Source of the DNA: Spiroplasma sp. SV19
GTDB lineage: Bacteria > Bacillota_I > Bacilli_A > Mycoplasmatales > Mycoplasmataceae
NCBI RefSeq assembly: GCF_030060925.1
Contig: NZ_CP045455.1
Span: 186,001-250,000, forward strand
Length of the DNA: 64,000 nucleotides
Direction of reading: 5' to 3'
Shown here: positions 4,766-58,835 of the stretch, piece by piece
Layout: the number at the start of each line of letters is the position of its first letter
How positions within the stretch are numbered: the first letter of the stretch is position 1
Position numbers and translations under genes: made by a program
The notes under the pieces: generated by a model
Told to the model about the DNA's origin: nothing
Databases searched by the model: none
The model's input: only the letters and a program-made list of their open reading frames with translations

Positions 4766-4818
4766 AGTTTTAATACATTTATTAAAAAATATAAAAACAA
4801 AAAAGAGTAAGATTATGC

Positions 4819-42293: not shown

Positions 42294-45200
42294 ATGAGCA
42301 ATAGCGAAAAGACAAATGAATTAATTTATACTTTAAATGATATTATGGCTGAACGGTTTGGCCGTTATGCCAAATATATTATTCAAGATCGTGCTTTACC
42401 AGATGTTCGCGATGGTTTAAAACCAGTTCAACGACGCATTTTATTTGCGATGAATGAATTACGGTTAACTTTTAATAGTAGTTATAAAAAATCAGCTCGT
42501 ATTGTTGGAGAAGTAATCGGGAAATATCACCCCCATGGTGATACGTCTGTTTATGATGCGATGGTGCGATTATCACAAAATTGAAAAGTACGTTATCCGT
42601 TAATTGACATGCATGGTAATAATGGTTCAATTGATGGTGATCCTGCCGCAGCAATGCGTTATACTGAAACTCGATTAAGTGAAATTTCATCATTTTTACT
42701 ACAAGACCTTGATAAAAAAACAGTTGCTTTTGCTCCTAATTTTGATGATTCTGAACAAGAACCAGTTGTCTTACCTGCTTTATTTCCAAATTTATTAGTT
42801 AATGGTTCTACTGGAATTGCTGCTGGGTATGCGACAAATATTCCACCACATAATTTACATGAAATCATTGATGCAACAATTCATTTTATTAAAAAACCAA
42901 AAAGTAAAATCACTGAATTAATAAAATATATTAAAGGACCAGATTTTCCAACCGGTGGTATTATTCAAGGAAAAAATGGGATTTTAGAAGCCTATCAAAC
43001 TGGAAAAGGAAAAATTATTATTCGAAGTAAAATTAAACATGAGAATAATGCCTTAGTTATTAGTGAAATTCCATATGAAGTTGTTAAACAAGATTTAGTT
43101 AAAAAAATTGATGATATTAAATACAATGAACCAGGGTTAAATATTAAAGAAGTTCGTGATGAAACTGATCGTGAAGGATTACGCATTGTTGTGGAACTAG
43201 GAAAACAAGCTAATGTTGAAGTTATTCGTAAATTTTTATTGAAAAATACTAATCTACAAGTTTCATATAATTTTAATATTGTTGGAATTGCCAAAAAGCA
43301 GCCATTACAATTAGGATTGAAAGAAATCTTAACTTACTATGTTGAACATCAACAAGAAGTTGTTACTAATCGTTCACAATTTGAATTAGCCCGTGCGGAA
43401 AAACGGTTGGAAATTGTGGCCGGATTAATTAAAACAATTAGTATTTTAGATGAAGTTATTGCTACAATTCGCCATTCAAAAGACCGTACTGATGCAATCA
43501 ATAATTTAGTTGCTAAATTTGCCTTTAGTAAAGTGCAAGCAGAAGCGATTGTCCAACTACGTTTGTACCGTTTAACTTCAACAGATATTTTGCAATTAGA
43601 AGCAGAACAAAAAGAATTAATTGCCACAATTGCTAATTTAAAAGCAATTTTAAGTGATATTAATAAATTAAACCATGTTATTATTCAACAATTAGAATTA
43701 ATTCGAAAAAGATTTCATAGCCCCCGTCGTAGTATTATTGAAGATGAAATTGAAACAATTGAAATTGAAAAGACAGAAACAATTATTGAAAAAGATTTAA
43801 ATATTTGAATTTCTCGTGATGGTTATTTAAAAGCATTAGAAAATAACCAACTTGTTAAATTATCAACAGAAGAATTTAAACGTAAACCAGGTGATTTATG
43901 AATTGCTGATTTTCAAGCTAATAGTTTAGATAAAATTTTATTAATTACTTCAAAAGGAAATTATGTAATTATTCCTGTTTATAAAATTAAATCAGTTCGG
44001 ATTAAAGACATTGGAGAGCATGTTAATACTATCTCAGAATTACCTGGCGAAGAAAAAATTATTAGTGCCTTTTTACTAAATGACTTTAATAAGCCAGAAC
44101 AATATATTATGTTAGCAACCAAAAATGGAATGATCAAGAAAACAGCTGTAAAAGATTTTGAAGCAACGCGAATTAGTAGAGCTATTAAAGCAATTAATTT
44201 AAAAGGTGATGATGAAGTTGTTGCTAGTCAATTAGTTGATAAACATTCATATCTGGTTGTGACTACAGCAAATGGTTTTATTGTTAAATATAAGGCAAAA
44301 GAAATTCCAACGTTAGGATTACGAACAGCTGGTGTTAAGTCAATTAATTTACGAGATGATATTGTTGTTGGTGCTGGCTATTGTAAAGAAGATAATCTTG
44401 TTTTAATTACAAATCTTAATGCAGGTAAAAAAATTACGGTAAAAGAATTACCATTATCAACCCGACCAGTTAAAGGGACAAGAATGTTTAAAGTCAATAA
44501 AAAGACAACTGAACTGGTAAAATGGATTTTTCTGGCAAAACCGAATGATACTTTACATATGTTAAACCAACAAGATGAAATCATATTATTTAATACAGAT
44601 AAATTAATGGTTCACAAGTTAGAACGAACAACTGATCCATTAGGTTTTGAAAATATTGTTGATATTGTGATTCCACAATATTATAATTTAAAAATAATCC
44701 ATTCTAAAAAAATGGGGGATCATCATAGTGAAAAACCAACCAAAAGTCATCATTTTCACCATGAACATAAAAAGCAACAACATAATGTTAAAACAGTTGA
44801 TAACATAGGGAATAAAGCAGTTAATTCAGCAGTTAATAAATCAGCGCCTGCTCAAAAAAGTAAAGAAAAAAGTAAAACTCTTAATGATAGTAATAGCGAT
44901 GATGAAAGTCACCTCGTAGTTGAAACAAATCTCGTTTTAGCACCAGTCACTGTAGCAAAAGAACTAGTTCTTGAAGAAATAGGATCTTCTGAAGCTAAAA
45001 ATGATTCAATAATAAATGATATTCAAGAGAAACAAACAGACCCAGTTTCTAAATTAGAAAATAACAAACCAATGCAAAAGAAGAAAGCTACTAAGCAAAA
45101 CCCAACAAAGAAAAAACCAATGCAAAAAAAGCCAGAAGTAAAACAAACAGCAAAAGAACCGTCTAAGGTTATTAACCAAATAGAACCAATTCTTGCTGAA

Positions 45201-45431
45201 GAACAATCATCATCTTTTCTGTTAAAAACTTTTGGCAAAGTTAAAACAACAGTTGATATTTTACTTGAGAAAAAAGAGTTAGCTAAAGCACAAATGACAT
45301 TGCAAAAACAGCAGAAAGAAGAACAAAACAGTCAAGCAAAAGAAGACAAGTTAGTTCAAAATGAGACTCAACAAATAAAACCAAATCTTGGTAAGGTAAT
45401 TACAACTGTTGAAACTTTAATTAAGATGTAA
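42294..45431 (+). CDS. parC: DNA topoisomerase IV subunit A with long C-terminal tail
   Basis: 1045 residues, about 200 longer than usual. N-terminal breakage-reunion domain with the QRDR stretch [15 protein letters not shown] and the catalytic Tyr in AMRYTETRL (Tyr123). The C-terminal beta-pinwheel runs to ~residue 802. From there ~240 residues are low complexity: His-rich [13 protein letters not shown], acidic parts, Lys-rich repeats (KPMQKKK and KPMQKKP), and two related stretches ([16 protein letters not shown] and [14 protein letters not shown]). The second is cut at the stop, which lies at the edge of a palindromic repeat element; a tail-like remnant resumes at 54967, so the gene was probably longer before the insertion. 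Confidence 0.92.
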
Positions 45432-45456
45432 ATTGTAAATCCAAGTGCAACAAATC
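45430..45456 (-). repeat. Left part of interrupted palindromic repeat element
   Basis: AAATTGTAAATCC followed by AAGTGCAACAAATC. This equals, in reverse orientation, the right half of the complete element at 57513-57584. The other part lies at 54917-54969, on the far side of the provirus. AAATC occurs at both junctions. Confidence 0.75.
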
Positions 45457-45556
45457 TATTAACTTAATAATATCATAAACAATTTAAAAAACAAAAAATT
45501 TTACTCCCTCGCAGCCTTCGGTTTTGGTAAACCAAATTTCGAAAGGGGGCAAAATT

Positions 45557-45628
45557 ATGACAAAAAAAATAATCAAAACACTTCGCATTGCAATGATTAT
45601 TATCAATATTATATTACTTTTCTTATAA
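45557..45628 (+). CDS. 23-residue membrane peptide
   Basis: MTKKIIKTLR then a short hydrophobic helix IAMIIINIILLFL. GAAAGGGGG lies 7 bases before the ATG, which is a strong ribosome binding site, and a terminator follows at 45645. Upstream there is a small palindrome (TTTGG-TAAA-CCAAA, 45523-45536). Size and site argue for a real small phage peptide, but nothing proves translation. Confidence 0.45.
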   Translation: MTKKIIKTLRIAMIIINIILLFL

Positions 45629-45644
45629 ATGTCAATTGTTTAAC

Positions 45645-45672
45645 GAGAGAACTACGTTCTCTCTATTTTTTT
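45645..45672 (+). terminator. Terminator inside provirus left end
   Basis: GAGAGAAC (45645-45652), 3-base loop, GTTCTCTC (45656-45663), then TATTTTTTT. Good stem and T tail. Confidence 0.75.
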
Positions 45673-45750
45673 GTCAAATTTTACCTAGTCCCTTTCAAAA
45701 TTTTACCAAAACCTACGCACTGCTCGTTTCATCATTAAACTTTCTAATCT

Positions 45751-46722
45751 TTAGTTAAAAAATTGAAGAAATACAGTTTTTGCAGAATTTCAATTAAGAC
45801 ATGGCCGTGGTTTCTCGTTTATTATGTTAACTATTTCATCATAATATTGCTGTGAATAAGTATCTAAGTCAATTCCCTTAGGAAATCAATGTCTTAAATC
45901 ACGATTAATACGTTCAACAATAGCTTTTTGTGTTGGTGTTCCTGAATTACAAAAGTAAAGATTAGAATTAGTTATTTTTTCTATTTCTTTTCACTCACTA
46001 AATTCTTTACCTTGATCAGTTATTATTCCTTTAATACATTTTTTCAATAATCGATTTTTGAAAATATCTTTTAAGGTTTTAACAACTTCACTAGCTGTTT
46101 GTTCTTTTAATTTTTTACAAATCGTAAATTTAGTAACTTCTTCTGTTAACGTTAAACAAGCTGATTTATGATCTGCTCCAACTATACAATCCATTTGAAA
46201 TCAACCAAATTCATTTTTACTATGCTTAGCTTCTACAATAGTTTTATAATTAGATAATTTTCCACGATTATCTAATGCTTTTTTTATTTTTCTTCGTTTA
46301 CCGTGAAAATATAAATGTTTCTTGTTCAAATTAAACAATCCTAAATAAATATATTTATATAAAGTTTTAAAACAAATCGGAAACTTAATTCCAAATTTAT
46401 GTTTATATTCATAACAAATAATTTCTGGTGATCAACGAAATTTATTATACTTTTCATCTAACCAAATTAATTGTTCATACGAAAATTTAATATGTTTAAC
46501 TGACTTTTTACGGTTTTTAAGATACTTTTTGTGAGCTTTAATAGGATTATATTCTTCATTATAAAACCGATTAATTTCACGTAAAATAGTACTTCGATGT
46601 TTATCCATTGCCTTTGCTATTTTAGCCAAATTTGGTTTACCATTTTTCTTTTGAAACAATCTTGATACTAATAATTGACTTAATATAACACGCTCATCAA
46701 CACTGAAATGTTTATAACTCAT
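45751..46722 (-). CDS. IS30-family transposase
   Basis: 323 residues. N-terminal helix-turn-helix (NLAKIAKAMDKHRSTILREI) followed by a DDE integrase core: D178 (FQMDCIV), D236 (IITDQGKEF) and E270 (QKAIVERINRDLRHWFPKG), spacing D-57-D-33-E, as expected for IS30. It would catalyse integration or movement of the phage DNA, as proposed for SpV1. It is divergent from the lipoprotein at 46789. No flanking IS30 terminal repeats were found tightly around the gene alone, so it appears to be a phage gene, not a separate insertion sequence. Confidence 0.92.
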
Positions 46723-46743
46723 TATTTAATACCTTTCTAAAAT

Positions 46744-46755
46744 TTTTGTTATAAT
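46744..46755 (+). promoter_or_regulatory. Promoter of the chimeric lipoprotein
   Basis: TTTTGTTATAAT with TATAAT at 46750-46755, the same 12 bases as before the chromosomal lipoprotein gene at 9832. The transcript would start about 25-30 bases before ATG 46789. Confidence 0.5.
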
Positions 46756-46788
46756 GATTATATATTTAACAAAGAAAGGAACAAATAT

Positions 46789-47223
46789 ATGAAAAAAATA
46801 TTAAGTATTTTAGGAGCAATAAGTTTAACAACCATTACTACTTCAAATTTAATATCATGTTCACAAAATAACACAAATAATAATGATAATAATATACCAA
46901 AACCACCTTATAATCCAGAATTACCACCAGAAAATAGCAGTTGAAAATTAATTCTACCATCTGAATTTATTAATGAATTTCAAAAGCCAAATAATAAATG
47001 ATATATTGGAATTTTTCCAAAAATGTGATCACTAGGGCAACCAGTAAAACCATATAAAGTTTTTAAAGCTAATAATAATGGTAAAGATATTAATGTTTAT
47101 GGTCGTTTTGGTGATGGTATTTATACTTCAAATGATATTATTTATCGTTGAGATAATAATAATGAGCCTATTAAACCTGATATTAATTCTGATACAGGAC
47201 AAATTACCAATTGAAAAGGATAA
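46789..47223 (+). CDS. Chimeric lipoprotein carrying a copy of a phage surface-protein segment
   Basis: 144 residues. Leader MKKILSILGAISLTT ... LISC is a lipoprotein signal very like that of the product at 9832, followed by an Asn/Pro-rich spacer. From SEF (~residue 58) to DTGQ (~138) the sequence is the same, apart from one substitution seen, as a segment of the large phage protein encoded on the opposite strand at 47246-49445. The DNA copies are 46958-47201 (plus) and 48657-48900 (minus). The product should show this phage segment on the outside of the cell. Six codons of different sequence follow before the stop. It ends at a shared terminator. Confidence 0.85.
46958..47201 (+). repeat. 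Inverted duplication, copy in lipoprotein gene
   Basis: 244 bases that are nearly the same as the reverse complement of 48657-48900; I see two base differences (an A/G in the Phe-Ile/Val-Asn part and an A/G in the SLGQP part). The near identity points to recent copying or gene conversion. Confidence 0.9.
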
Positions 47224-47247
47224 AAAGGAACTTTATAGTTCCTTTTT
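47222..47247. terminator. Bidirectional terminator
   Basis: AAAAAGGAACT (47222-47232), TTAT loop, AGTTCCTTTTT (47237-47247). Lies between the lipoprotein stop and the stop of the convergent phage gene, overlapping both. Confidence 0.85.
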
Positions 47248-49445
47248 ATATTAAACGTACAAATTTCATAAAAATAATTAATAAGAATATATTTGTTATT
47301 GTACTATACAATGCTGGACTAAATTTTCACACTTCAAATGTTTGATTAAAAAAACTATATATTGTTTGAAAAATGCGACCAACACCACTTGCTAATTCAT
47401 TTACTTGTTTTACACCAGGAATATTATTTACAATTCATATTGCAGCATTTCGCATGTGACAAGCTAAATTATATCAACTACAACTTTCATACTGTGCTTG
47501 TCATCATTGTCCATCAGGGAACAAGCCACCATTATTTATCTCTTGTCAATTATAAATTCCAAAATTAAAATCATAATATCGATACATATCATTTTCTTTT
47601 TGAGCTAATAACTCAAAGACATTATAACCAATTTTTTGTTCTTCAATTTTTTTATATTTTAAACCATATTTATCTTTTAAAGTACCATCAAAAATATAGC
47701 CTTCATTCTGATTAATATTATAATCACTTGAAACTGAAAAATCATAATTAAAAATGTTACCGTGCTTCGTAGTATAAAAACGATTTTTAAATGCTGAATA
47801 TAATTTAATATCTAATTGTTTATATTTATCAGAAAAATAAAAATAACGTGGATAAATTTTAAAACCATTATTAGCTAATAAACCATATTTTTTATTATAA
47901 CCTTGAACATAAGTATTATTTTCTAGATCAAAAATTGTCCGCAAATAATCCTTATAAAAGTTTTGTGAAACAGTAAACATACTATTCAATATTTTTTCAA
48001 ATTGATTTTTATTAGTATTATTTTCATTAATTAAAACATTTCTGAAATTAACTAATTTTAAACCAAAAAAGTTAATTAAAACAGTATCATATTCTAAATT
48101 ATCAATATAACCACTTTCAATAAAATTACTACGATTTTGGAATACTGGTACTAAAGCATGTGCAAAAAAAGCTTTTAAAAATTTATTAATCTCAATTTGA
48201 CCTTTCATCTGTTCAAAAATTACTTTATTAGTATTTGGAGTACTACCCGGATAATAATTATAAGTTTCAGCATTAAAATTAAATGTATCTTCTTTTTCTT
48301 TCATAAAAGAAAATAAAAAACCTAAATCATCAGTATATCGATAACTATTATAATCATATCCATTTCAATATTGTTTTAAATGAGTTAATTCTAAACTCCC
48401 AGCTATAATATTTTTACGTTCATCAATCGTTAAAATCATTCGATAAATTGATTTTCTAGTTATAGTATTATTATTAATTTTATCTAAATTATTAATAATT
48501 TCAAAATCAAAAATAATTCTTTGACTACCCAATCTTGGATCATCATAATCTGGATTACCACCTTGTTGTACTCTAATATTTTCTTGCACAATTACATTAA
48601 TATATTTTAGCAAAAAAGAACGTACACTTTCCCAATATTCAGTATACCATTTAAACTGTCCTGTATCAGAATTAATATCAGGTTTAATAGGCTCATTATT
48701 ATTATCTCAACGATAAATAATATCATTTGAAGTATAAATACCATCACCAAAACGACCATAAACATTAATATCTTTACCATTATTATTAGCTTTAAAAACT
48801 TTATATGGTTTTACTGGTTGCCCCAGTGATCACATTTTTGGAAAAATTCCAATATATCATTTATTATTTGGCTTTTGAAATTCATTAACAAATTCAGATG
48901 ACTTAATTAATGTTAAATACATAAAATTTAATTGAATTTGTTGTAAATTACCAACACTTTTTTCTAACTTATTTATAATCTCAACAGTATTAAAATACTT
49001 AGCAAAAGAATAAGAAAAATTAGTTAACTCTTTTAAAAATTGTTTTTTATCAATGTCATAAAATTTATCAATATTATATTGTTTAGCATAAGTATCTCAA
49101 TTCTTATATAAATCCATAAATTCATCACTTGGCTTGTCAAACGAAACCCCGGTTGAATAACTATCCTTTAAAAAGTCTAAATATCACTTATCATTATAAG
49201 TTAATGTTCGTGATGTTTTTAAAGTCGGATTAATAAAATAATTTGTTTCTGATCAATTCTCAAAAAAGGTACTTCGTAAAAACATTGTATTAATAAAATC
49301 TGTTTCATTCATTCCTGTTGCTTGTTGCTTAACAGTATAATTTTGCTGATTTAATGGTTTAAACGCTGTTAAAGTAATAAAAGGAATTACTAGACTTAAA
49401 AAAACCTAAAATAACTATTAGAGATAAAGATAACACTTTTTTCAT
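47246..49445 (-). pseudogene. Large phage surface/adsorption-type protein, frameshifted in signal peptide
   Basis: From ATG 49445 the signal peptide MKKVLSLSLIVILGF is read, but a T7 run (minus strand; 49398-49404) throws the frame: TAA follows ten or so residues later. With one T fewer the frame continues LSLVIPFITLTAF and stays open to TAA 47246, giving about 732 residues. The C-terminus has one membrane helix (NIFLLIIFMKFV) and before it a Trp/Cys-rich part (GQWWQAQYESCSWYN). Such a secreted, C-terminally anchored protein fits the phage tip adsorption protein (SpV1 ORF1 type). Either inactive, or switched by slippage. A segment is copied in the lipoprotein at 46789. Confidence 0.75.
48657..48900 (-). 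repeat. Inverted duplication, copy in phage surface gene
   Basis: Partner of 46958-47201. It codes for about 80 residues (SEFVNEF to DTGQ) in the middle of the large phage protein. Together with the other copy it forms a 244-bp inverted repeat with a 1.45-kb spacer, which could also support homologous inversion of the DNA between them. Confidence 0.9.
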
Positions 49446-49457
49446 ACTAAACTACTC

Positions 49458-49694
49458 CTAACTATATAACGTTTTTGACACAATAAACCCAACAATATAT
49501 AAACTTGATATTGTCAACATTAAGGGATGACTAAATAAAATTGCCATTTTACCAAACAATGAAAGTAACCAGGTATCTGAATTATACAAATCCATAATTA
49601 TATTTTTTGCTGACGTCAATTGGTTTATAATAACCGTAATAAAACCTGTCCCAAAAATAGCGATTGCTGCAACTAATAAAACTAATTTAATCAT
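49458..49694 (-). CDS. Phage membrane protein, two helices
   Basis: 78 residues: signal-like helix [20 protein letters not shown], a short polar loop and a second helix [14 protein letters not shown]. Its ATG overlaps the stop of the upstream gene (49694). Likely a minor coat or assembly protein of the phage; exact role unknown. Confidence 0.7.
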
Positions 49695-49948
49695 TATTTA
49701 TTAATTCTTTTAAATGCAGCTTCACGAGTTTTAGCTTGCTTAGCTAAATTTGATAGCTGTTGTTTATTACGATTACTTTTAAACTGTTTACGTTCTTTAA
49801 AATGTTTTTGTAAACCTTGTTTAGTATCAGAAACACCACGAGCAGTTGCAGAATAAACATTTGAAACACTAGTTTGAACAGTTGAACCTAAATCATTATA
49901 TTGTGTCGAAGTACCATGTATAGCATAAATTGATAATTTCACAACCAT
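49694..49948 (-). CDS. Small basic phage protein
   Basis: 84 residues, Gln/Lys/Arg-rich C-terminal half ([24 protein letters not shown]), no membrane helix. It overlaps the preceding gene by 61 bases in another frame. ATG 49948 has a weak site upstream. DNA binding is possible because of the basic tail, but unproven. Confidence 0.6.
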
Positions 49949-50091
49949 AAAAATATAATAAAATAAGCAATAGTAGTATTTGTCATTGGTAATTTAGTAT
50001 TCCAAATTACATCAAAAATAAACAAAAATATATCAAAAATAAATGCAAAAATCTTATCCCAATTACTATTTTCAGCTAACATATTAACCAT
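49888..50091 (-). CDS. Small phage membrane protein
   Basis: 67 residues with two hydrophobic segments (FAFIFDIFLFIFDVIW and [17 protein letters not shown]). The ATG overlaps the end of the ATPase gene (AATGGTTAA). Trp TGA near the end. Probably a coat or assembly component. Confidence 0.6.
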
Positions 50092-51097
50092 TTTTATCAC
50101 TTCCTTTTTCTTTTTTAGGTTTTAAATTCTTTTTAAGAATATCAATATCTAATAACTCTAAACGTTCTTTTATTGTTAAATCTTTAAGTTGGGTTCAATA
50201 ATACTCTTTAGTAACAGGAACATCATCATTTTTTAAATCACGAACAAATGATAATCATTTACTTTCATATTTTTGGGCGATTTCTAATGGGATAATTATT
50301 TTAAAAAACCGAATTCCTAATCCAACATCAGATCTATGTTTTGCACGTTTACCTTCCGCTGTACGTTTGACAGATTCTGTTTTTCAAATTTCATAATCAG
50401 TAATATCTTGAAAAATACCAATTCGCATAATAAAGAATCTATTAAAAAAATTAATTCCTTTTTTAGTAATAGGTTTTTTAAGGGAAATAGGAATAATAAT
50501 TCCACTAGCTAATTGACGGATATTATTTCAAAGCATACCTTCGCGTTGTGCAGTAAATAAAGCACGATGTCCAAAATGTCTTGCCAACACAATTCAAGGA
50601 ATTTTGCCACGGTGAGTTACTTTTTCATCATGCGGGCTTGTCCCATCAATATACAAAAAACTCTCATCAAACAAAATTAAACTGTCATCAGGGGGAACTG
50701 CTTTTGTTCGATCAGTAAAGTCTAAATTTTTAAATGTTAAAACTTTAACTTTATCATCTTCTAATGGATAATTACTATAAATCTTATCTGTTAATAATTT
50801 CATTGTTTCTGATAAATAAGTTAAAAGTAATGTTTTTCCAGTTCCTAATTTACCAATAATAACTGACAACGGGTTATCTCAAACAAAATTTACTAAACGA
50901 AAAGCATTTAACTGATAAAAAATATTTTTTCATAATCACCAAATAAAATAAAGACATTGCAAAACAAATAATAATCAAAATATTAAACCAGTATAATTTA
51001 ATGAAACAATTCAAATTAGCAGATCAATTAAACTAAATAAAACCATTGAACCACTAATATAACAATAATTTTTTAAGAAAAATATAAACTTTTTCAT
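50084..51097 (-). CDS. Zot-like phage assembly ATPase
   Basis: 337 residues. Two N-terminal membrane segments (~5-60), then Walker A GKLGTGKT (residues 82-89) and Walker B SLILFDESFLYIDGT (~135). This is the arrangement of Zot/pI proteins of filamentous phages, which drive extrusion of the virion through the membrane, although here the membrane helices lie before and not after the ATPase domain. C-terminus is Lys-rich. GGAGG precedes ATG 51097. Seven TGA tryptophans hide it in the standard code. Confidence 0.85.
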
Positions 51098-51132
51098 TTT
51101 ACCTCCAATAGTTATTTATAATTAAACTAGTA

Positions 51133-51441
51133 TTATTATGGTTTTCTCTCCCCACAAATCAAAAAGGAGAGTGAATAAAATATTTTTAGTATTTTTTTAT
51201 GAATACTACGGGCATTTACACCAATAATGCCCTATATATTATTATTTTTAGGTTCTAATCCTTTTGGAAAAGAATTATTCATATTAGATAAAATAATATG
51301 ATTATTCAATACAATAGAAATTAATGACCTAACATTTATTTGATTTATTATTATTTCAGTTTTAATAGGAGCAGGAATAATAATCAAAAGAATAATATCA
51401 ATATTTATATAAAAGTTTGTGGGGAGAGAAAACCATAATAA
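51133..51441. repeat. Segment bounded by perfect 26-bp inverted repeats (candidate invertible DNA)
   Basis: 51133-51158 (core GGTTTTCTCTCCCCACAAA) and 51416-51441 are exact reverse complements. They enclose 257 bases that carry a reading frame on the plus strand, against all neighbouring phage genes. If turned around, the frame would lie in line with the minus-strand operon. No target duplication was seen outside the repeats. An inner hairpin GGGCATT/AATGCCC (51210-51232) is also present. Confidence 0.75.
51171..51412 (+). pseudogene. Membrane protein frame inside the 26-bp inverted repeats, off by one T
   Basis: AAAAAGGAG is followed at 51171 by GTG; the frame MNKIFLVFF runs into a T7 run (51192-51198) and stops after about 18 codons. 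With one more T it would join the frame WILRAFTPIMPYILLFLGSNPFG ... IIIKRIISIFI ending at TAA 51410, about 80 residues with two membrane helices and several TGA tryptophans. So the gene is out of frame by one base at a homopolymer. It resembles the small membrane proteins of the rest of the phage. Confidence 0.6.
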
Positions 51442-51454
51442 CAACAAAATTTAA

Positions 51455-51646
51455 TTACTTAAGACAACTAACTATTTTGAAAACCATTCACAACAAAAAC
51501 CAAGTTAAAAATAAAATAACAATTCAAACACCAACCATAAGAGTTAAATATTCATTTTGAGTTAAATTTCAAGTTGTAATTTCTTCAACTTTAGATTTAT
51601 CTATAAACAAAAAGACATGAACAAAAACTCTTTTAATTTTTCTCAA
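51455..51646 (-). CDS. Small phage membrane protein
   Basis: About 63 residues if TTG 51646 is the start: basic N-terminus, then helix LMVGVWIVILFLTWFLLWMVF. Start is unsure, as there is no ATG or clear ribosome binding site; an overlapping ATG frame (51657) gives only 18 residues. Coding character of the C-terminal part is good. Confidence 0.5.
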
Positions 51647-51687
51647 TCTTTTGCCATATTTAAAAACTTAAAATTTTTTGAATAACT

Positions 51688-51807
51688 TTAAAAAAGTACC
51701 AAAAATAAAATTATAAATAATACAAACGACAAAACATATAAAAATCCTGGAGCATTTGAACCAATAATATAACTTACAAACTGTACTCAATAATCATATA
51801 AACTCAT
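51688..51807 (-). CDS. 39-residue phage membrane peptide
   Basis: MSLYDYWVQFVSYIIGSNAP followed by helix FLYVLSFVLFIILFLVLF. Starts 2 bases after the previous stop. Small one-helix proteins of this type are common in filamentous phages as minor coat proteins. Confidence 0.55.
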
Positions 51808-51808
51808 C

Positions 51809-52243
51809 TTAATTTAAGTCTTCTCAATCATTAAATAATTCTTGTTCTTGTTCAACACTTCAGTTTGTTAAATTATCATTATTATTCTTTATTTTTATTT
51901 TTTTAGGTTCATCAGGATAAAGAGCTTTTTTCATACGGGCAAAATAATTTTGTTTATATTGATCGTACAAATTTATCAATTCTGTTCCAGTTAAATATTT
52001 TCAAATATATCGTTTCAAATTTTCATCATATTTAAAAATAGGATAAGAATTATCATAAATCAAACCAATAGCTACTTGATTAGAATGTGCTTTACTAGGA
52101 TAAATAAACCTATTACTCAACCAAAAACCAATATGTCGATTATGATTAGGCAAATTTATAAAGGAAGCTTTTTCTGTTGTAAAAACAATAAACTCTTTTA
52201 GAATAAAATAATTTGCTACATTAATATTTTTATAAAAATTCAC
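51809..52243 (-). CDS. Soluble phage protein, unknown
   Basis: 144 residues from a GTG start (52243), behind TAAGGTG. Aromatic and Asn-rich ([30 protein letters not shown]), acidic C-terminus ending NDWEDLN. Trp TGA codons near the end. A replication or DNA-binding role is possible given its place in the operon, but no rolling-circle motif is visible. Confidence 0.6.
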
Positions 52244-52252
52244 ACAATCACC

Positions 52253-52426
52253 TTACTTTCACACATATAATTCATTTTTACTAGTATTAATACCTGCAAA
52301 TCATTTACTTTCAATTATTTTACGAAAAGATTGAAAACCATTAAAATTTATAAATCATTCAATATCAATAGTCTTAATAATATTAAAAGGAGTAGGCGAC
52401 TTATTATAATTTGGTTTCTGATACAT
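52253..52426 (-). CDS. Small phage protein
   Basis: 57 residues (MYQKPNYNKSPTPFNII...), overlapping the next upstream gene by 23 bases. Contains three TGA tryptophans. No motif; it precedes the 144-residue gene by 9 bases. Confidence 0.5.
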
Positions 52427-52568
52427 TATTCAAATCAACTCGCTTTCGATTGCACTGCATAGAACAAACGTTTAACTTAAAATATAAACGACCAACAAAT
52501 TTCCTATTTAAAATAGAGTAACAAATTTGACATTTCCTTTTAATAAAAAATATTCAAATTCCTAACAT
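52404..52568 (-). CDS. Small Cys-containing phage protein
   Basis: 54 residues with CQIC near residue 14 and C/C later (VCSMQCN near 42-48): two C-x-x-x/C-x-x-C pairs spaced like a small zinc ribbon. Overlaps both neighbours, which fits compact phage gene order. Confidence 0.5.
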
Positions 52569-52702
52569 AATTTAACACCACCCTTATTAATACAATCTAA
52601 ACTAGGACACAAAATCATACGACAAACAAAATTTTTATTTCTTTTGCCTTTTTCAACTTCCAATTTGCAAATATCACAACTATATTCTTGACACTCACAC
52701 AT
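52562..52702 (-). CDS. Small Cys-rich phage protein
   Basis: 46 residues with eight Cys (MCECQEYSCDICKLEV ... FVCRMILCPSLDC). Pairs such as CDIC and CPSLDC suggest a zinc-binding fold. ATG lies 2 bases after the methylase stop. Could regulate phage expression; unproven. Confidence 0.55.
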   Translation of the reverse strand: MCECQEYSCDICKLEVEKGKRNKNFVCRMILCPSLDCINKGGVKLC

Positions 52703-52704
52703 AA

Positions 52705-53499
52705 TTAATCTAACTCCTTAAAATTTGTAACAATTAGTTCTTGGCCAAGTTTTGGTTTTCTATTATGGCAATTACTAGAGCTATATACTCACTCAAATTC
52801 AGAAATATTAAATTCTTTAAACAACTCTTTAATGAATTCAGAATTATCAATACTTAAAATTCACTTTCCTTTAATCTTTAATATATTTTCTTTAAACTCT
52901 TGAAAATCAATTTTTGAATGCTTATATGGTTTTCCCTTATTGTAATAATATGGTGGGTCTAAATACCAAATAATATTTTCGTCATTACCATATTTATTAA
53001 TAATATCTTTATAGTCTGAATTGAAAAATTTAATATCATATTTAGGATTAACCAATAGCTTTCTAACATTTTCAACCCTTTTTAATTTATTAATATTAAA
53101 ATTTTGTTGTAATCTTTTATTTGTCCAAGTTCCTCATTCTTTACCATTGAAAGTTAAAGCATTTTTCATTAGAAACTTTTCTCCTTCATTTAAACAATAA
53201 TCATCTAGCATTTTTTCTTTCATTTCATTAATACTTTTTGAATTAGGATATGCTAGTTTTTCCAAATAGTCTAATTCAATAAAATGGATTCCTTGTTGTC
53301 AAAAATAAATTAAATCACTGTATAAATCATTGAAAATTACTTTTGTACATAACTGTTGATCTAACACATTTAAACCAACTGAAGCACCGCCACAAAATAG
53401 ATCAATAAATATATTAAATTTACCCGGCAAAAATGATTTAATTTTATCAAAATGCTTTGCCTTTCCACCAGGTCAAGATAATGGGCTAATAAATTTCAT
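52705..53499 (-). CDS. D12-class adenine-specific DNA methyltransferase
   Basis: 264 residues. N-terminal PLSWPGGKAKHF and DLFCGGASVGLNV (S-adenosylmethionine pocket, FxGxG-type), and catalytic DPPY at residues 181-184 (WYLDPPYYYNKGKPYKHS). These are the motifs of Dam/D12 N6-adenine methylases. It has no restriction partner here, so it may protect phage DNA from host nucleases or regulate expression. Starts 4 bases after the previous stop. Four TGA tryptophans, one in the first motif (SWPGGK). Confidence 0.92.
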
Positions 53500-53502
53500 A
53501 AG

Positions 53503-53667
53503 TTATTTAATCTTACTTTCCATTTCTTGCACAATATACTGATAAAAACTCATTTCTTTTCGAATAATATTAATCGATTCATGATGAATTTTATATTGAT
53601 CTAATTGAATTAAAGTAGCTTGCATAGTTTTAATTTTCATTTTAATTTCATCTAACAAATCTTGCAT
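53503..53667 (-). CDS. Small helical phage protein
   Basis: 54 residues (MQDLLDEIKMKIKTMQATL...), amphipathic helices throughout, likely coiled coil. The ATG lies 3 bases after the previous stop with GGAGG in the end of that gene. No motif. Confidence 0.6.
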   Translation of the reverse strand: MQDLLDEIKMKIKTMQATLIQLDQYKIHHESINIIRKEMSFYQYIVQEMESKIK

Positions 53668-53669
53668 AA

Positions 53670-54077
53670 CTATTCCTCCAAACTTTCATATTTTGTGTTG
53701 TCTTTTAACATTCAATGTATTTTAGTACAAGCACCACAAGATTCTAAAAGTTCAAAATCACTTTTCTTTAATTGTTTTTCATCTTTCTTATATAATTCAT
53801 CAGTATAAATTGCGTTATCATACTTTAATTTTTCAATTTCTTTATCTTTTTCATCAAGTTTATTTTCATAAAAACTCTTTACTTTTTCTAAAATTTGTTC
53901 ACGATCATTTTTAGAAAATACTTCATCTGCTTTGTATCCACTTAATTGTTCCTGATATTCTTTCAACATTTCATAAGTTGCCTTCAAAACATCTGGTGCC
54001 ATATTATTAGGTCACTTTGTAAAATCTTGACCACAAACTGAAATTATTTGCTCGATACTATCTATAATTTTTTTCAT
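53670..54077 (-). CDS. Coiled-coil phage protein
   Basis: 135 residues. After about 30 residues a long charged helix (EVFSKNDREQILEKVKSFYENKLDEKDKEIEKLKYDN region) is followed by a Cys pair in LLESCGACTKIHW. Two TGA tryptophans extend it at both ends beyond its standard-code frame. AAGGAGTA precedes the ATG. Function unknown; a structural or replication-accessory role is possible. Confidence 0.65.
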
Positions 54078-54294
54078 AAAAATACTCCTTAAATTACTGT
54101 AATAACCAATGTTGTATTAATGTAACTTAGTATTGTTAAATAAACAATGTTAATAAACAATGTAATAAAAAACAAAAATACAAAATTGGCACACTGAAAA
54201 ATACTATTAAACAAGTTAATAGTTAATATAAAATTAAATAATCACATAACAAAGCTAGTGTGCCTTAGCTAATGTACATGATCAAGAAAAAATA
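54078..54294. other. Provirus non-coding region with inverted repeat
   Basis: No gene seen. GGCACACT (54188-54195) and AGTGTGCC (54257-54264) form an 8-bp G+C-rich inverted repeat around a 61-base A/T-rich loop. Nearby AAACAATGT occurs twice in tandem-like spacing (about 54148-54172). In a single-stranded DNA phage such a region may be an origin or packaging signal; this is inference. Confidence 0.4.
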
Positions 54295-54543
54295 CTAGAA
54301 TCCTTTAACCATAACTCTAAAGAAATTCAAAATCTTAACAATAACAAAAATGGCAAATGGAATTAAAATAATTCAAGCATCACCAAGAAATGCCATTAAC
54401 TGTGGTAAAACCGCATAAACAGCTTCTTTAACTTTCATCATAGCTTGTCCAATACCACTTCACATAGAACCCATTCCATCAGAAATAGTAGGTGTATCTA
54501 CTGCTAAAAAATTAATTGCTGTTGTTAAATAAATTCCCAACAT
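54295..54543 (-). CDS. Phage major coat-like protein
   Basis: 82 residues. N-terminal hydrophobic part (MLGIYLTTAINFLA), a Gly/Met-rich amphipathic middle (GMGSMWSGIGQAMMKV) and a C-terminal helix IILIPFAIFVIVKILNFF with basic end (RVMVKGF). Short, one or two helices with a positive C-terminus: the layout of filamentous phage coat proteins. Start overlaps the previous gene (TAATG). Confidence 0.7.
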
Positions 54544-54692
54544 TATTTTTTATCCTCCTTACTTTCAATTTCTTTCTTTTCTTTATTTTTTCCTCGAATT
54601 TGGCGAACTTTCTGATAAATTGACAAACCAATTCAAGCAAAAATACCTAGTAAAATAAGAATACTAAATATTCATGTTAACCATACTGGCAT
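54543..54692 (-). CDS. Small phage membrane protein
   Basis: 49 residues: helix [23 protein letters not shown], then a Lys/Glu-rich tail. AGGAGGAG precedes the ATG. Ends with TAATG overlap to the coat-like gene, so the two are translationally coupled. Confidence 0.7.
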
Positions 54693-54723
54693 AACTTAAC
54701 TCCTCCTAAAAATTAACCCCGCG

Positions 54724-54805
54724 ACACGCTTCGCGTGTTCGCTACGCTCAAAATAAACTATATTGAATAAATTATCCGCGTAATTTATTAGCGGATAATT
54801 TATTC
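54724..54805. other. G+C-rich hairpin and 15-bp palindrome at provirus right end
   Basis: ACACGC (54724-54729)/GCGTGT (54733-54738) with flanking GCGA/TCGC is a local G+C island in very A/T-rich DNA. Next to it 54765-54779 and 54791-54805 form a perfect 15-bp inverted repeat (core AATTATCCGC), overlapping the end of the small gene at 54772. Candidates for phage origin or transcription end signals. Confidence 0.45.
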
Positions 54806-54912
54806 ATTTTCTTTACATTATTAATTACTATCTTATTTACAGTATTAATAACACTATCTTTTCCATACTTAGTTACTAAGGACCGCAAAATAAAATAATG
54901 TTTCTTTTCCAT
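54772..54912 (-). CDS. Small basic protein at provirus right end
   Basis: 46 residues from ATG 54912 (MEKKHYFILRSLVTKYG ... NKLRG), basic, no membrane helix. Its ribosome binding site GGAAAGGAG lies in the loop of the palindromic repeat element, so the split element supplies its translation signal. The same frame is open through the repeat to ATG 54954, a less likely start. Confidence 0.5.
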   Translation of the reverse strand: MEKKHYFILRSLVTKYGKDSVINTVNKIVINNVKKMNKLSANKLRG

Positions 54913-54916
54913 TAAA

Positions 54917-54969
54917 AAATCAACTCCTTTCCGAGTTGATTTGTTGCACTTCATATTACAGTTTACAAT
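54917..54969 (-). repeat. Right part of interrupted palindromic repeat element
   Basis: AAATCAACTC, CTTTCC loop, GAGTTGATTTGTTGCACTT, then CATATTACAGTTTACAAT. In reverse orientation it matches the left and central part of the complete element at 57513-57584. With 45430-45456 it rebuilds one whole element, sharing AAATC at the junction. Confidence 0.75.
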
Positions 54970-55059: not shown

Positions 55060-55064
55060 AAATT

Positions 55065-55100
55065 AATAAAAATCAGTCAAAATTTGGCTGATTTTTATTA
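55065..55100 (+). terminator. Terminator, probably the original one of the parE-parC operon
   Basis: AATAAAAATCAG (55065-55076) pairs with CTGATTTTTATT (55088-55099), with TCAAA/TTTGG extending the stem. No active gene ends here now, which supports the view that an interrupted operon once did. Confidence 0.7.
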
Positions 55101-55144
55101 TATAATTTTAATAATCTGATAAATAGAAATGGGAGCGATTAGGA

Positions 55145-55945
55145 ATGACTAATTTAACAGAAGACTTTTTAGTTAAAGGCGTTAATATCAATAAATTTTA
55201 TCGCAAACAACATGTTTTAAAAAATGTTAATTTAACGGTGAAAAAAGGCGATCGAATTGGAATTGTTGGTCCAAATGGAACTGGAAAAACAACTTTATGT
55301 GAAATTTTAGCACAACTTCGTCGTGTTTCTGATGGAACTAGTGAAAAGAAATTTGGAGTTCGCATTGGAATGCAATTACAAGAATCAAAATATCCAAAGG
55401 GAGTTACTGGCTATGATATTTTAAATTTATATTTAAAAGCTTATAATTTGTTTATTTCCCCAAATGAAATTTATCAATTGCTATTAGATTTACAAATTGA
55501 AAAAATAATGAATAAAGATATTACAAAACTATCGGGGGGACAACAACAAAAGATTAATATTTTATTAGCATTAATTGTTGAACCAGATTTAATTATTCTT
55601 GATGAATTAGCAACAGGATTGGATTTAGAAATTAAAGATAAAATATATGAAATATTAAGTAACTTTTTGGCCAACCAAGATAAGGCATTATTATTAATTT
55701 CACATAATATGGGAGAGATTGAAAAATTTTGTGACACTTTAATTTTTATGGTTTATGGTGAAATCACAAAAGTATCAAAAATTAACGAAATAGTCACCAA
55801 ATATGGTAGTGTTGAAAAATTTGTTAAAGATCAGTTTAAAGAATACCAAATTGGTGGTTATAACCAAGATTATAGAACAGGAGCAATGGAAAATGATAAA
55901 TGAGCAAAAAACTGAGCAAAATACATCGATAAAAACAAAAAATAA
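55145..55945 (+). CDS. ABC transporter ATPase subunit
   Basis: 266 residues. Walker A GPNGTGKTT (~42-50), signature LSGGQQQK (~132), Walker B LIILDELATG, H-loop SHNMGE. Sequence style (GMQLQESKYPKGV, YGSVEKFVKDQF) is close to the ATPase halves of the fused genes at 4903 and 6783, so it belongs to the same subfamily, but here ATPase and permease are separate. Two TGA tryptophans near the C-terminus. It overlaps the permease gene by 53 bases. Confidence 0.9.
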
Positions 55946-56672
55946 TTGTTTAGTTAGTGAAAAAATTAATTTATTTTCTTTATATAGTTTTTTTATAAAT
56001 TACTTACGTCGTCAAAAATTAGTTTTGATTTTTGCTGTTATTATCATTCCAATTGGAATTCTTGCACAAGCGGTTTTTGATAACCGCCACGGACCAGAAG
56101 TAATGTCATTGTCAATTGGCATTACTTTTATTGCAAGTGGTGCTAGTGTTGCAATGTATATGATGATGGGATTCATAATTGATTTAAAAATGTCGGTTGT
56201 TTATAAACGAATTGGTTTATTAGGAATTAAACCTTTTGGGTTTATTGTTATTGTTTATGCTTATTGTTTTACTTTAGTATTAATTGCGGATTTATTAGTG
56301 TTAATTGCTAGTTTTATTATCACTGCTGCCTTAAAAATTGATTTTGCTGTGGCTTATAATTTCGTTGTTTTTCTCTTTTTCTTTCTTTCTATTTTTATTA
56401 CTGCTTTTGCGATTAGCTTAATGATGATTGCTGTTATTTTGATAAATTCACGAACTGTGCAATCATTAGTAACAGGAATCTTTAGTCTTTTATTTGTTGG
56501 GGGTTCATTTATTGTCGCCGCATTTATTCCAGCCCTATTTGGGAACAATTATCAAGAAACTTTATTGTCATTGAATGGTTTAAGTATTAGTTTAGGGGTT
56601 ATTTTGGGTTTAATTCTTTTAACTGGTCTTTTAACATGATTAATCATTCGAATTTTCCGTTGAGATAATTAA
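55893..56672 (+). CDS. ABC-2 type permease subunit
   Basis: 259 residues, six hydrophobic segments (from LVLIFAVIIIPIGILAQAVF to LSISLGVILGLILLTGLLTW). ATG 55893 has AGGAG upstream; it lies within the end of the ATPase gene. RIGLLGIKPFGF corresponds to RIGATNIKPVFF of the fused transporters. Probable exporter with the ATPase before it; substrate unknown. Confidence 0.82.
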
Positions 56673-56787
56673 AATATTACAAAAAAGAAGTTAAAATTAA
56701 TTGGCAAAAAGCAATTATTTTGCTATGATATACTTGTTGCAAAATTATGCGAAGAATTATGTTTGAACAGAAAAGAGGAATCAGTAA

Positions 56788-56937
56788 ATGCGTGAAGGAA
56801 TAATTTTACGTTGCGAACAGTGCAAAGAAGAAAACTATATTGCAAAACGTGATAAAAAGAAACAACAAGAAAAATTAGAAGTAAAAAAATATTGTTCAAA
56901 ATGTAACCAACATACTTTACATAAAGAAAAAAAATAG
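56788..56937 (+). CDS. rpmG: Ribosomal protein L33
   Basis: 49 residues, the usual length. Zinc-ribbon Cys at 9, 12, 36 and 39 (CEQC and CSKC), with the typical [13 protein letters not shown] and [17 protein letters not shown]. Part of the large ribosomal subunit. GAGG precedes the ATG. Followed by a strong terminator. Confidence 0.95.
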
Positions 56938-56965
56938 TTCCTTATATACAGGAACTATTTTTTAT
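56929..56965 (+). terminator. rpmG terminator
   Basis: A 14-bp stem, 56929-56942 with 56950-56963 (core ATAGTTCCT), contains the stop codon and ends in T6. Confidence 0.85.
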
Positions 56966-57098
56966 GCTTTTAGTTATTAATTAATTTTGTGTTATGATTA
57001 TTAAGAGGAAAATCTGATGTTGGAAAATAACCTTCAACAGATGATTTTAATAGCCAAAAAAATGTTATGAAGGAATAATAAGTAAGGAGTAAAGGACA

Positions 57099-57602
57099 AT
57101 GATTCGTCGGGCAACAATCTTAGATCAACATCAAATTGAAGAATTACGACAAAAAGCATTTAGTAAAATTAGCATTGGGGATTATAGTTTACTCCAACAA
57201 GCAGCAATTTTACAACAATGGCAAAACGAAGATTTTTGTAAGGTTTTAATTCAAGAAGAAGGGTATGTCATTATTTTTGAAAATAAAATTTTAGCTTTTG
57301 GATCATATCACTTTGAACAAAATCAAATTACACAACTGTATGTTGATCCGGCATATCAAGGGTGATATTTTGGTAAAAAAATGTTACAACAATTAGAAGC
57401 AGTTGCCCAAGCAAATGATTTTTTAGATATTACTGTTGATGCTTATTTACCAACTGTTGCTTTTTTTCAAAAACATCATTATAGTGCAATTAAAAAGAAT
57501 TTACACAATTATGTAAACTGTAATATGAAGTGCAACAAATCAACTCGGAAAGGAGTTGATTTGTTGCACTTGGATTTACAATTTACAATTTTACAATTAT
57601 AA
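57099..57602 (+). CDS. GNAT N-acetyltransferase with C-terminus altered by repeat element
   Basis: 167 residues. A GNAT fold is visible: N-terminal RRATILDQHQIEELRQ, central strand ILAFGSYHFEQNQITQLYVDPAYQGWYFGKKML (acetyl-CoA site Q/R-x-x-G-x-G/K in altered form, QGWYFGKK), and DAYLPTVAFFQKHHYSAIKK. From about residue 139 the reading frame enters the palindromic repeat (57513-57584) and gains a foreign tail with KCNKSTRKGVDLLHLD. The normal end of the domain is thus just kept. Substrate unknown. Confidence 0.8.
57513..57584 (+). repeat. Complete palindromic repeat element
   Basis: GTAAACTGTAATATG, then a perfect 19-bp hairpin (57528-57546 with 57553-57571, GGAAAG loop), then GGATTTACAATTT. 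The same element, split by the provirus, lies at 45430 and 54917 in reverse orientation; both outer flanks are conserved, so the repeat unit is about 72 bp and not just the hairpin. It carries a ribosome-binding-site-like loop (GGAAAGGAG). Confidence 0.8.
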
Positions 57603-57641
57603 TTAAATTAGGCCCAAAATTAAATAGAATGGAGTATACTT

Positions 57642-58835
57642 ATGGAATATGATATTTCAAGAGAACAAGTTGAAAATACATATATCAAAATTAAAAATCA
57701 TATTATTAAAACTCCAGTAATTTACGCAACGAAATTAAGTAATATTACTTCATTTAAACTGCGGGGGGCCTTATCTAAAATGATGGCGCTTGAACCAGCA
57801 ATAATTAAAAAAGGTGTTGTTGCCGCAAGTGCTGGTAATCATTCACAAGGAGTTAGTTTTGCAGCTAATTTATTAAATGTACCAGCAACAATTGTGATGC
57901 CAAAAACAGCACCAATTAGTAAAATTAATGCAACTAAAAATTATGGTGTGGAAGTGATTTTGCATGGTGATTTTTTTGATGATGCCAATAAAAAAGCTTT
58001 AGAGATTGCTAAAACAGAGGACAAAGTATTTGTCCATGCTTTTAATGATCTTGATGTTATTATTGGTCAGGGAACAATTGGAATAGAAATATTAGAAGAC
58101 TTGAAAGAAGTTGACTATATTCTGGTCCCCATTGGTGGAGGAGGAATCCTTTCCGGAATTGCAAGCTATGTTAAAGCTGTCAATCCCAATTGTAAATTAA
58201 TCGGCGTGCAAAGTCAGAATGTTCCGAGTTATTATGAGGCAAGGAAAACAAACCAAGCATTTCAAGTCCAAGGTAAATTATCAATTGCTGATGGAATTGC
58301 TGTTAAACAGACGGGAGATATTACTTTTAGTATCTTAAATAAGTATGTTGATGATGTTATTCTTGTATCGGAAGCAGAAATTGCAGAAACAATTTTATTT
58401 TTATTTGAAAATTGTAAAATTGTGGCAGAAGGGGCAGGCGCAGTAACAACTGCGGCAATGCTATTTAATAAATTAAATGTTAAAAATAAAAAAATTGTTT
58501 GTGTTTTATCAGGGGGAAATATTGATGTGACAACCTTTTTAAATATTACAAACCGTGCTTTAATTAATCAACGTCGTCGAGTTGTTTTAAAAATTGATGC
58601 ACCGTTAGGACACGGACATTTAACGAAAATTACAAATGTTGTTGATTCGCATGGTGTTCAAATTCATAAAATCTCTGATTCCCAATTAGAAAATAGTTTA
58701 GAAGTTAACCGTGAAATTATTCGATTAGTAGTTGATATTAATAGAAAAACCGAATTAGCAAATATTGTTATTGACTTAGAGAAGTTAGGATATACTGTTA
58801 TGGAAAAAGAATTTATTAATTCAATTACTAAATAA
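57642..58835 (+). CDS. ilvA: Threonine dehydratase (IlvA/TdcB type) with short N-terminal deletion
   Basis: 397 residues. PLP enzyme turning threonine (or serine) into 2-oxobutyrate (or pyruvate) and ammonia. SFKLRG with PLP-Lys39, ASAGNHSQGVSFAA, PIGGGGILSGI and VLSGGNID match. C-terminal ~75 residues form an ACT-like regulatory domain. Between KLSN and TSFKLRGA about 15 residues, which in relatives hold the K-x-E-N-x-Q segment, are missing without loss of frame. This may weaken or alter activity. ridA overlaps its stop (TAATG), which makes sense: RidA clears the enamine released by this enzyme. Confidence 0.88.
   Translation: MEYDISREQVENTYIKIKNHIIKTPVIYATKLSNITSFKLRGALSKMMALEPAIIKKGVVAASAGNHSQGVSFAANLLNVPATIVMPKTAPISKINATKNYGVEVILHGDFFDDANKKALEIAKTEDKVFVHAFNDLDVIIGQGTIGIEILEDLKEVDYILVPIGGGGILSGIASYVKAVNPNCKLIGVQSQNVPSYYEARKTNQAFQVQGKLSIADGIAVKQTGDITFSILNKYVDDVILVSEAEIAETILFLFENCKIVAEGAGAVTTAAMLFNKLNVKNKKIVCVLSGGNIDVTTFLNITNRALINQRRRVVLKIDAPLGHGHLTKITNVVDSHGVQIHKISDSQLENSLEVNREIIRLVVDINRKTELANIVIDLEKLGYTVMEKEFINSITK

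What the first reader, a model, noticed from the sequence alone, without database searches (positions are those of the whole stretch)
57513..57602. Solo palindromic element fused to the 3' end of a GNAT gene
The element supplies the last ~28 residues of the GNAT protein and its stop region, much as the other copy supplies the stop of ParC. Insertion near 3' ends of genes, with a hairpin and a built-in GGAAAGGAG, suggests a small mobile element that spares gene function. It might alternatively be a scar left by phage excision.
Basis: partly seen in the sequence, partly recalled or inferred. Interest (0 to 1): 0.55.

Follow-up and report, generated by a model that had tools for sequence, protein, structure and literature searches.

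The report
Palindromic scar of a collapsed phage
The short palindrome at the end of this acetyltransferase gene is the two outer tips of a virus-transposon of Spiroplasma joined together after the virus's genes were lost, and similar remnants recur at different places in related genomes.

Summary
The palindrome is real; its true limits are 57512-57587 (76 bp). It consists entirely of the two ends of an SpV1-type plectrovirus (Vespertiliovirus, a filamentous phage with an IS30-type transposase): 51 of 51 bases match the right end and 30 of 30 the left end of prophage 1 (45427-54967), sharing 5 bases (GATTT) at the join. A second prophage, 99.5% identical, lies at G000:C1:351431-360957. In circular phage R8A2B the same kinds of ends meet, 3 bp apart. 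At least eight solos, in 4 of 14 genus genomes, share this inner join. Best reading: a nearly-precise-excision footprint, in which slippage between GATTT repeats collapsed a prophage and left its terminal inverted repeats. The copy here also marks one end of an inferred ~108 kb inversion. It does not spare the GNAT gene: a conserved C-terminus is replaced, and the stop codon lies 13-15 bp outside the element. That these phages transpose is already described (ICTV profile, citing Melcher 1999). The recurrent solo remnant, a 130-bp miniature relative and a conserved circle-junction promoter motif were not found in the papers I could search.

The parts
57512..57587 (+). solo element, 76 bp: right terminal inverted repeat + small hairpin + left terminal inverted repeat of the plectrovirus
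   Evidence: 51/51 identical to right end and 30/30 to left end of prophage 1
57512..57541 (+). right-end inverted repeat (TIR-R) TGTAAACTGTAATATGAAGTGCAACAAATC
57542..57557 (+). inner hairpin AACTCGGAAAGGAGTT; in the intact phage it carries the Shine-Dalgarno-like GGAAAGGAG before a small phage ORF
57558..57562 (+). GATTT join: last 5 bases taken from the right end = first 5 of the left-end repeat; inferred slippage site
57558..57587 (+). left-end inverted repeat (TIR-L) GATTTGTTGCACTTGGATTTACAATTTACA
57099..57602 (+). GNAT gene (code 4, 167 aa), native C-terminus replaced; 25 residues encoded by the element, 4 by the flank behind it
   Evidence: Pfam Acetyltransf_1 E 9.5e-9; relatives' C-termini
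57575..57603 (+). hybrid promoter-like site: TTTACA inside the element, 17 nt, TATAAT in the flank, facing ilvA
   Evidence: 11 of 12, best of 27 in 54800-57800 where shuffles give 19.1; none in 1350-1600 of L089, upstream of ilvA in G010, where shuffles give 1.2
57642..58835 (+). threonine deaminase-like gene (called ilvA here; name from recall), neighbour on the left-end side
45427..54967 (-). prophage 1, 9.54 kb plectrovirus between its two tips, in the 3' part of parC
45427..45456 (+). left tip of prophage 1; provides the TAA stop of ParC
54914..54967 (-). right tip of prophage 1 with the inner hairpin
45751..46722 (-). IS30-type transposase of prophage 1 (rve + HTH_38)
   Evidence: likeness to IS30 also from the annotation of R8A2B
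42294..45431 (+). parC, C-terminally truncated by prophage 1

Best explanation
The element is the collapsed remnant of an SpV1-type plectrovirus prophage. The virus integrates like an IS30-family transposon, through ~30-bp terminal inverted repeats, and makes a 3-bp target duplication. Because the repeats are inverted, they can pair in single-stranded DNA. The hairpin just inside the right end exposes a copy of GATTT, the first five bases of the left-end repeat. A growing strand that has copied the right-end GATTT slips to the left-end GATTT and skips the whole phage. What remains is a 76-bp palindrome with both ends and the host flanks. This is the counterpart of the 'nearly precise excision' of Tn10. 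Composition from the two ends, the 5-bp join and its recurrence are shown. The slippage step is inferred. In this genome the collapse happened before or after an inversion between two oppositely oriented prophages (also inferred), so the solo joins flanks from two different old insertions.
For: Solo = 51/51 of the right end + 30/30 of the left end. Both ends meet in the R8A2B circle with 3 bp (TTA) between the tips. rve + HTH_38 transposase in the prophage. Exact 3-bp duplication in 6 of 23 paired prophages against 6.3% for random pairings, permutation p 0.003. Eight solos at eight places in 4 of 14 genus genomes share the inner join (five by exact pattern; three more among fetched loci), with arms and loops that differ from one another. 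In whole-locus alignments GNAT matches of nine relatives end at query 396-414, the tip being 414. The ABC-ATPase gene that stands beside ilvA, or a partial ilvA match, in five relatives' loci is at the right tip of prophage 2 here. Read in the ABC-to-ilvA direction, the triplets outside that tip and outside the solo's left arm are both ATT, a match with about a 6% chance.
Against: One genome per species was available, so no site could be seen both with a full prophage and with the solo. Slippage over 8-9.5 kb on five bases is rare; I assume that pairing of the inverted ends helps. Three of eight solos (L022, L037, L084) have right-type arms on both sides, and L022 and L037 have the same rare substitution in both arms, which fits fold-back copying better than a left-right join. 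By eye only 2 of 8 solos show the 3-bp duplication, one of them in a T run. 17 of 23 prophage pairs lack it, both prophages of this genome among them.
Confidence: 0.72

Rival explanations
1. The 76-bp element is a miniature inverted-repeat element (MITE) that the phage transposase moved to this place as a finished unit.
For: It keeps both transposase ends. A longer 130-bp miniature with one inner deletion occurs at three loci in G012; two of these share flanks with copies in G003. Solo L020 has a clean 3-bp duplication TGT.
Against: Only one solo was found in the window's genome. The eight solos differ in arms and loop instead of looking like copies. The copy here has no duplication, and its flanks come from two old insertions.
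Confidence: 0.15
2. The palindrome is a pre-existing chromosomal attachment site and the phages insert into it.
For: Joining the two tips of prophage 1 across the phage gives, as reverse complement, the solo sequence.
Against: Both tips belong to the phage's own circular genome in R8A2B. Prophage flanks outside the tips are unlike one another. 3-bp duplications at the tips of 6 of 23.
Confidence: 0.03
3. The palindrome formed by fold-back copying of a single phage end.
For: L022 and L037 are perfect palindromes over both arms with the same rare substitution on both sides.
Against: In the window copy the two arms differ and match the right and the left end respectively, each at 100%.
Confidence: 0.04
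4. An ordinary intrinsic terminator or host repetitive palindrome (REP-like) unrelated to phage.
For: Very stable hairpin between two genes.
Against: Not among the 3 sites of the terminator scan of 54800-57800; sequence fully explained by phage ends.
Confidence: 0.02

Closest known systems
Vespertiliovirus (SpV1-type Plectroviridae) prophage, e.g. phage R8A2B NC_001365
   Same: Same kind of terminal repeats, meeting in the circle; IS30-type transposase. The ICTV profile (whole text read) states that these phages use transposition, the packaged genome being a circular transposition intermediate (citing Melcher 1999, not held)
   Different: No phage genes left; only 76 bp of the two ends
Tn10 nearly precise excision footprint
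   Same: Deletion between short direct repeats helped by inverted ends (PMC12524634, passages read). That it leaves a palindromic remnant is recalled
   Different: The element is a filamentous phage; the direct repeat is 5 bp and arises from the phage's own end hairpin
Bacterial MITEs (definition recalled)
   Same: Short, no gene of its own, ends shared with an autonomous transposon
   Different: No sign of several copies of the 76-bp unit; the 130-bp relative in G012 and G003 fits better
IS circle junction promoter (recalled)
   Same: TTTACA in one tip and a TGTAAT-like box in the other come to 17-bp spacing when the tips are joined with 3 bp
   Different: Carried by a packaged ssDNA phage; no transcription data

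Membership tests
Vespertiliovirus / SpV1-type prophage termini | both terminal sequences occur at the joint of the circular phage genome | tested here: met
   R8A2B 4706-4788. C74 gave no match and SkV1 only an 11-mer, so met in 1 of 3 known phages
Vespertiliovirus / SpV1-type prophage termini | resident prophage with identical ends in the same genome | tested here: met
   prophage 1: 51/51 and 30/30; prophage 2 is 99.5% identical to prophage 1 over 9.58 kb
IS30-type transposon | rve + HTH_38 transposase in the autonomous element | tested here: met
IS30-type transposon | short target duplication (3 bp here; 2-3 bp for the family is recalled) at the tips of prophages | tested here: met
   6 of 23 pairs, permutation p 0.003; 17 of 23 lack it
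IS30-type transposon | target duplication at this solo copy | tested here: not met
   TTA versus ATT; the flanks come from two insertions
Nearly precise excision footprint | join lies in a short direct repeat near the inverted ends; both ends retained | tested here: met
   GATTT join
Nearly precise excision footprint | same site seen before and after excision | not testable with these tools
   no strain pair available
MITE | several copies of the same short unit at unlike sites in one genome | tested here: not met
   one solo found in G000; met for the 130-bp relative in G012
MITE | mobilised by the autonomous element's transposase | not testable with these tools
   needs an assay
Xer/dif or other attachment-site phage | common core at the insertion sites | tested here: not met
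   outer flanks unlike one another by eye; 3-bp duplications in part of them

The most novel reading that the evidence does not exclude
A packaged single-stranded-DNA phage that replicates as a transposon sheds miniature, gene-free derivatives (76-bp palindromes and 130-bp units). These live on as satellites of the phage transposase, act as portable -35 boxes for neighbouring host genes, and seed chromosome inversions. The phage's own genes may be switched on only in the circle, by a promoter assembled from the two tips.
Probability: 0.25. Interest if true: 0.62.

Novelty: new variant of a known kind. Interest (0 to 1): 0.42.

Why it matters
Spiroplasma genomes of this group hold many plectrovirus copies and are heavily rearranged, and published work calls these phages a likely cause (PMC3563533 and PMC8140453, passages read). 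The solo gives a base-exact record of how one such phage was probably lost and how two of them probably inverted ~108 kb. It offers simple sequence signatures (3-bp duplications, the GATTT join, a 17-bp junction promoter motif) by which phage insertion, decay and rearrangement can be counted in any strain.

Tried and rejected
Rejected: chromosomal attachment site; Xer/dif site (the R8A2B joint first looked dif-like to me, but insertion sites share no core); plain terminator; fold-back from one end for the window copy. The viral-contig hit L079 looked unrelated when read. The non-Spiroplasma hits among the 35 are single 17-mer matches that I took as chance without reading them. Native downstream sequence of GNAT from G010 was not found intact in G000: one 71% match of 287 bp. 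A simple insertion in parC looked right when the flanks were joined, but G010 and G002 show about 0.2 kb of parC missing there, so prophage 1 also has an adjacent deletion. In the duplication count the tip position (17 or 18 nt from GTGC) was set by me after seeing the alignment; one left end is used in two pairs and two pairs have another right end between. In 'left' is a class by exclusion. In one search, 5 of 103 flanks were dropped for holding another element, and open frames needed no start codon. The output was cut in the middle; counts by place come. say that more matches are not listed, and only part of the matches became loci, so counts of ends and solos are lower bounds. G004, G006, G008 and G009 of the 14 genus genomes were not used for the end collection (0, 0, 0 and 2 matches).

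Full report
WHAT IS THERE. The window is Spiroplasma DNA: genes are open under code 4, the closest phages are Spiroplasma phages, and two genomes given as same genus, G005 and G002, have contigs of the same lengths as S. phoeniceum P40 and S. poulsonii MSRO_BK. It lies at G000:C1:186001-250000 of a 1.46-Mb genome. The palindrome at 57512-57587 is far more stable than shuffles. A repeat search links it to 54914-54967 (54 nt, 98%) and 45427-45456 (30 nt, 100%) in inverted orientation. These two are the right and left tips of a 9.5-kb plectrovirus prophage with a transposase of IS30 type (rve and HTH_38). Its DNA is 82-83% identical to phages R8A2B, C74 and SkV1 over 31-47% of the query. A second prophage, 99.5% identical over 9.58 kb, lies at G000:C1:351431-360957.

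THE ENDS BELONG TO THE PHAGE. In circular R8A2B (NC_001365) the left-end repeat and the right-end repeat with its hairpin stand back to back at 4706-4788. Between the tips ...CATAATTCA and TGCATCCTG... are exactly three bases, TTA. C74 and SkV1 showed no such ends. The ICTV profile of Plectroviridae (whole text read) says that Vespertiliovirus phages use transposition and that the packaged genome is a circular transposition intermediate, citing Melcher et al. 1999, which is not held.

INSERTION SIGNATURE. I collected ends from ten of the 14 genus genomes. By place, and by fuzzy pattern, one search counts 66 right ends, 7 right ends with the hairpin loop reversed, 71 left or other ends (one in G000 is a chance match and one in G002 a cut right end) and 8 solos. 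Host sequence outside the tips differs from copy to copy. Of 23 pairs of ends that can be joined into one prophage, 6 have an exact 3-bp duplication (G003 237378 CAT, 763361 AGA, 1050516 TTA, 1493566 ATT; G012 563035 AGG; G005 717285 TTT) against 6.3% in random pairings; permutation p 0.003. The other 17 do not, among them both prophages of this genome (2 of 3 and 0 of 3 bases). Recombination and adjacent deletions would explain that, but it is a limit of the test. That IS30-type elements make 2-3 bp duplications is recalled.

WHAT THE SOLO IS MADE OF. Bases 1-51 of the solo equal the right end of prophage 1, bases 47-76 equal its left end, and the 5 shared bases are GATTT. In the right end GATTT closes the inner hairpin (AAATCAACTC / GAGTTGATTT); in the left end it is the inner tip of the repeat. 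Eight solos at eight places in 4 of 14 genus genomes (G000 1, G001 3, G003 2, G005 2) have this inner join: five match an exact pattern searched in the 14 genomes, three more turned up with mismatches among fetched loci. L022 has ATTT in place of GATTT at the join. Their arms and loops differ, in ways also seen among the prophage ends of their genomes, so I read them as separate events. L020 has the duplication TGT and L017 TTT in a T run; the other six, the window copy included, do not (by eye). L022, L037 and L084 carry right-type arms on both sides, and L022 and L037 have the same substitution in both arms; these may have been made or evened out by fold-back copying.

MECHANISM. Deletion between short direct repeats placed near inverted ends is the nearly precise excision known from Tn10-related transposons. 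A paper that cites the work of d'Alencon et al. [quoted passage not shown] A phage with single-stranded DNA stages and 30-bp inverted ends is a natural substrate. The step itself is inferred. A miniature relative of 130 bp with one inner deletion is found at G012 1147k, 1051k and 813k and at G003 1410k (127 bp) and 1095k; by eye the G003 copies share flanks with the first and third G012 copies. So at least three sites carry the same unit, which fits mobilisation of miniatures by the phage transposase. For the 76-bp form such evidence is lacking.

EFFECT ON THE HOST GENES. In G010 the GNAT gene continues as ...KKNLHLSQNEEITTFFMKKYF, and the DNA of several other relatives encodes ...FMKKYF at the same place. 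The window protein has [31 protein letters not shown] instead: 2 residues before the element, 25 in it and 4 behind it. Pfam still finds the GNAT domain up to residue 128-133, so residual function is possible, but a conserved C-terminal stretch is gone. The gene is not strictly kept elsewhere: in G002 the frame is shifted and in G005 a TAA stands in the last stretch. ParC ends at the left tip of prophage 1 and lacks about 106 residues present in G010; about 0.2 kb of parC is missing between the two flanks. Over 98 usable flanks of 103, ends lie inside an open frame of at least 100 codons in 12 cases against 57 at a control point 400 nt outward, and an open frame ends within 200 nt in 30 against 7. 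Avoidance of genes is clear; choice versus survival is not separable.

REARRANGEMENT. In G010, G012 and G003 an ABC-ATPase gene stands directly upstream of ilvA; in G005 and G002 it stands beside a partial ilvA match. In G000 that gene is at the right tip of prophage 2, and ilvA is at the left arm of the solo, 117 kb away. Read in the ABC-to-ilvA direction, the triplets outside those two tips are both ATT. Prophage 2 and the solo are in opposite orientation. Reversing the ~108 kb between them restores ABC-ATPase - phage - ilvA. The inversion is an inference; I did not check gene order inside the 108 kb. recA is intact in G000 (305-aa open frame, no stops) but interrupted, split or partial in G012, G005, G002 and G003 and without a match in G001, G013 and G007, so homologous recombination between prophages is possible here.

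PROMOTER SIGNATURES. The left arm of the solo provides TTTACA 17 nt before a TATAAT in the flank, pointing at ilvA (11 of 12, best of 27 sites in 3 kb; the number of sites is not much above the shuffle mean of 19.1). The 250 bp examined upstream of ilvA in G010 have no site, where shuffles give 1.2, so the absence alone says little. In all 23 paired prophages, joining left tip, three unknown bases and right tip puts TTTACA and a TGTAAT-like box 17 bp apart: TGTAAT in 21, TATAAT in 1, TGTAAA in 1. R8A2B gives the same with its real joint. Single-base shuffles of that joint reach 10 of 12 in 0.95%. The tips are related to one another, so the 23 are not independent, but two diverged tip types keep the spacing. 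A promoter that exists only in the circle is a testable idea, not a result.

WHAT IS NEW. That these phages transpose is known. That phage repeats rearrange Spiroplasma genomes has been proposed. The searches, judged by their listings and the passages I read, gave no description of solo terminal remnants, miniatures or the junction promoter; subscription papers are mostly not held, and Melcher 1999 may contain part of it. Hence: new variant of a known kind, moderate interest.

Noticed in passing
window 46789-47223 and 47246-49312: A predicted lipoprotein next to the transposase carries, in opposite orientation, a 266-bp near-copy (96%) of part of the large phage ORF1. C74 and SkV1 have annotated repeats in and behind ORF1. 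It may be an invertible segment or a surface decoy.
   Followed up: no
window 52705-53499: The prophage carries a D12-class adenine DNA methyltransferase (Pfam E 1.6e-20).
   Followed up: no
L120, L121, L143, L216, L219, L244, L038: Seven right ends have the small hairpin loop reversed (CTCCTTTC-type instead of GAAAGGAG), which removes the Shine-Dalgarno-like motif before the first phage ORF.
   Followed up: partly
G005 right ends L140, L149, L161, L242; solos L017, L020: Left-type arms on right ends: tip sequences are exchanged between ends, perhaps by flipping of the joint within its inverted repeats.
   Followed up: partly
G017 locus L042: A similar end (TGTAAATGGAAGTGCAAC...) in another genus lies beside what, by eye, reads like the C-terminus of an IS30-type transposase, hinting that the phage ends come from an ordinary IS.
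   Followed up: no
G012, G005, G002, G003; G001, G013, G007: recA is interrupted, split or partial in the first four and not found in the last three, but intact in G000. G009 gave two overlapping pieces that I could not judge.
   Followed up: no
window 51133-51158 and 51416-51441: Perfect 26-nt inverted repeat in a phage intergenic region, possibly the repeats A/A' annotated in R8A2B.
   Followed up: no
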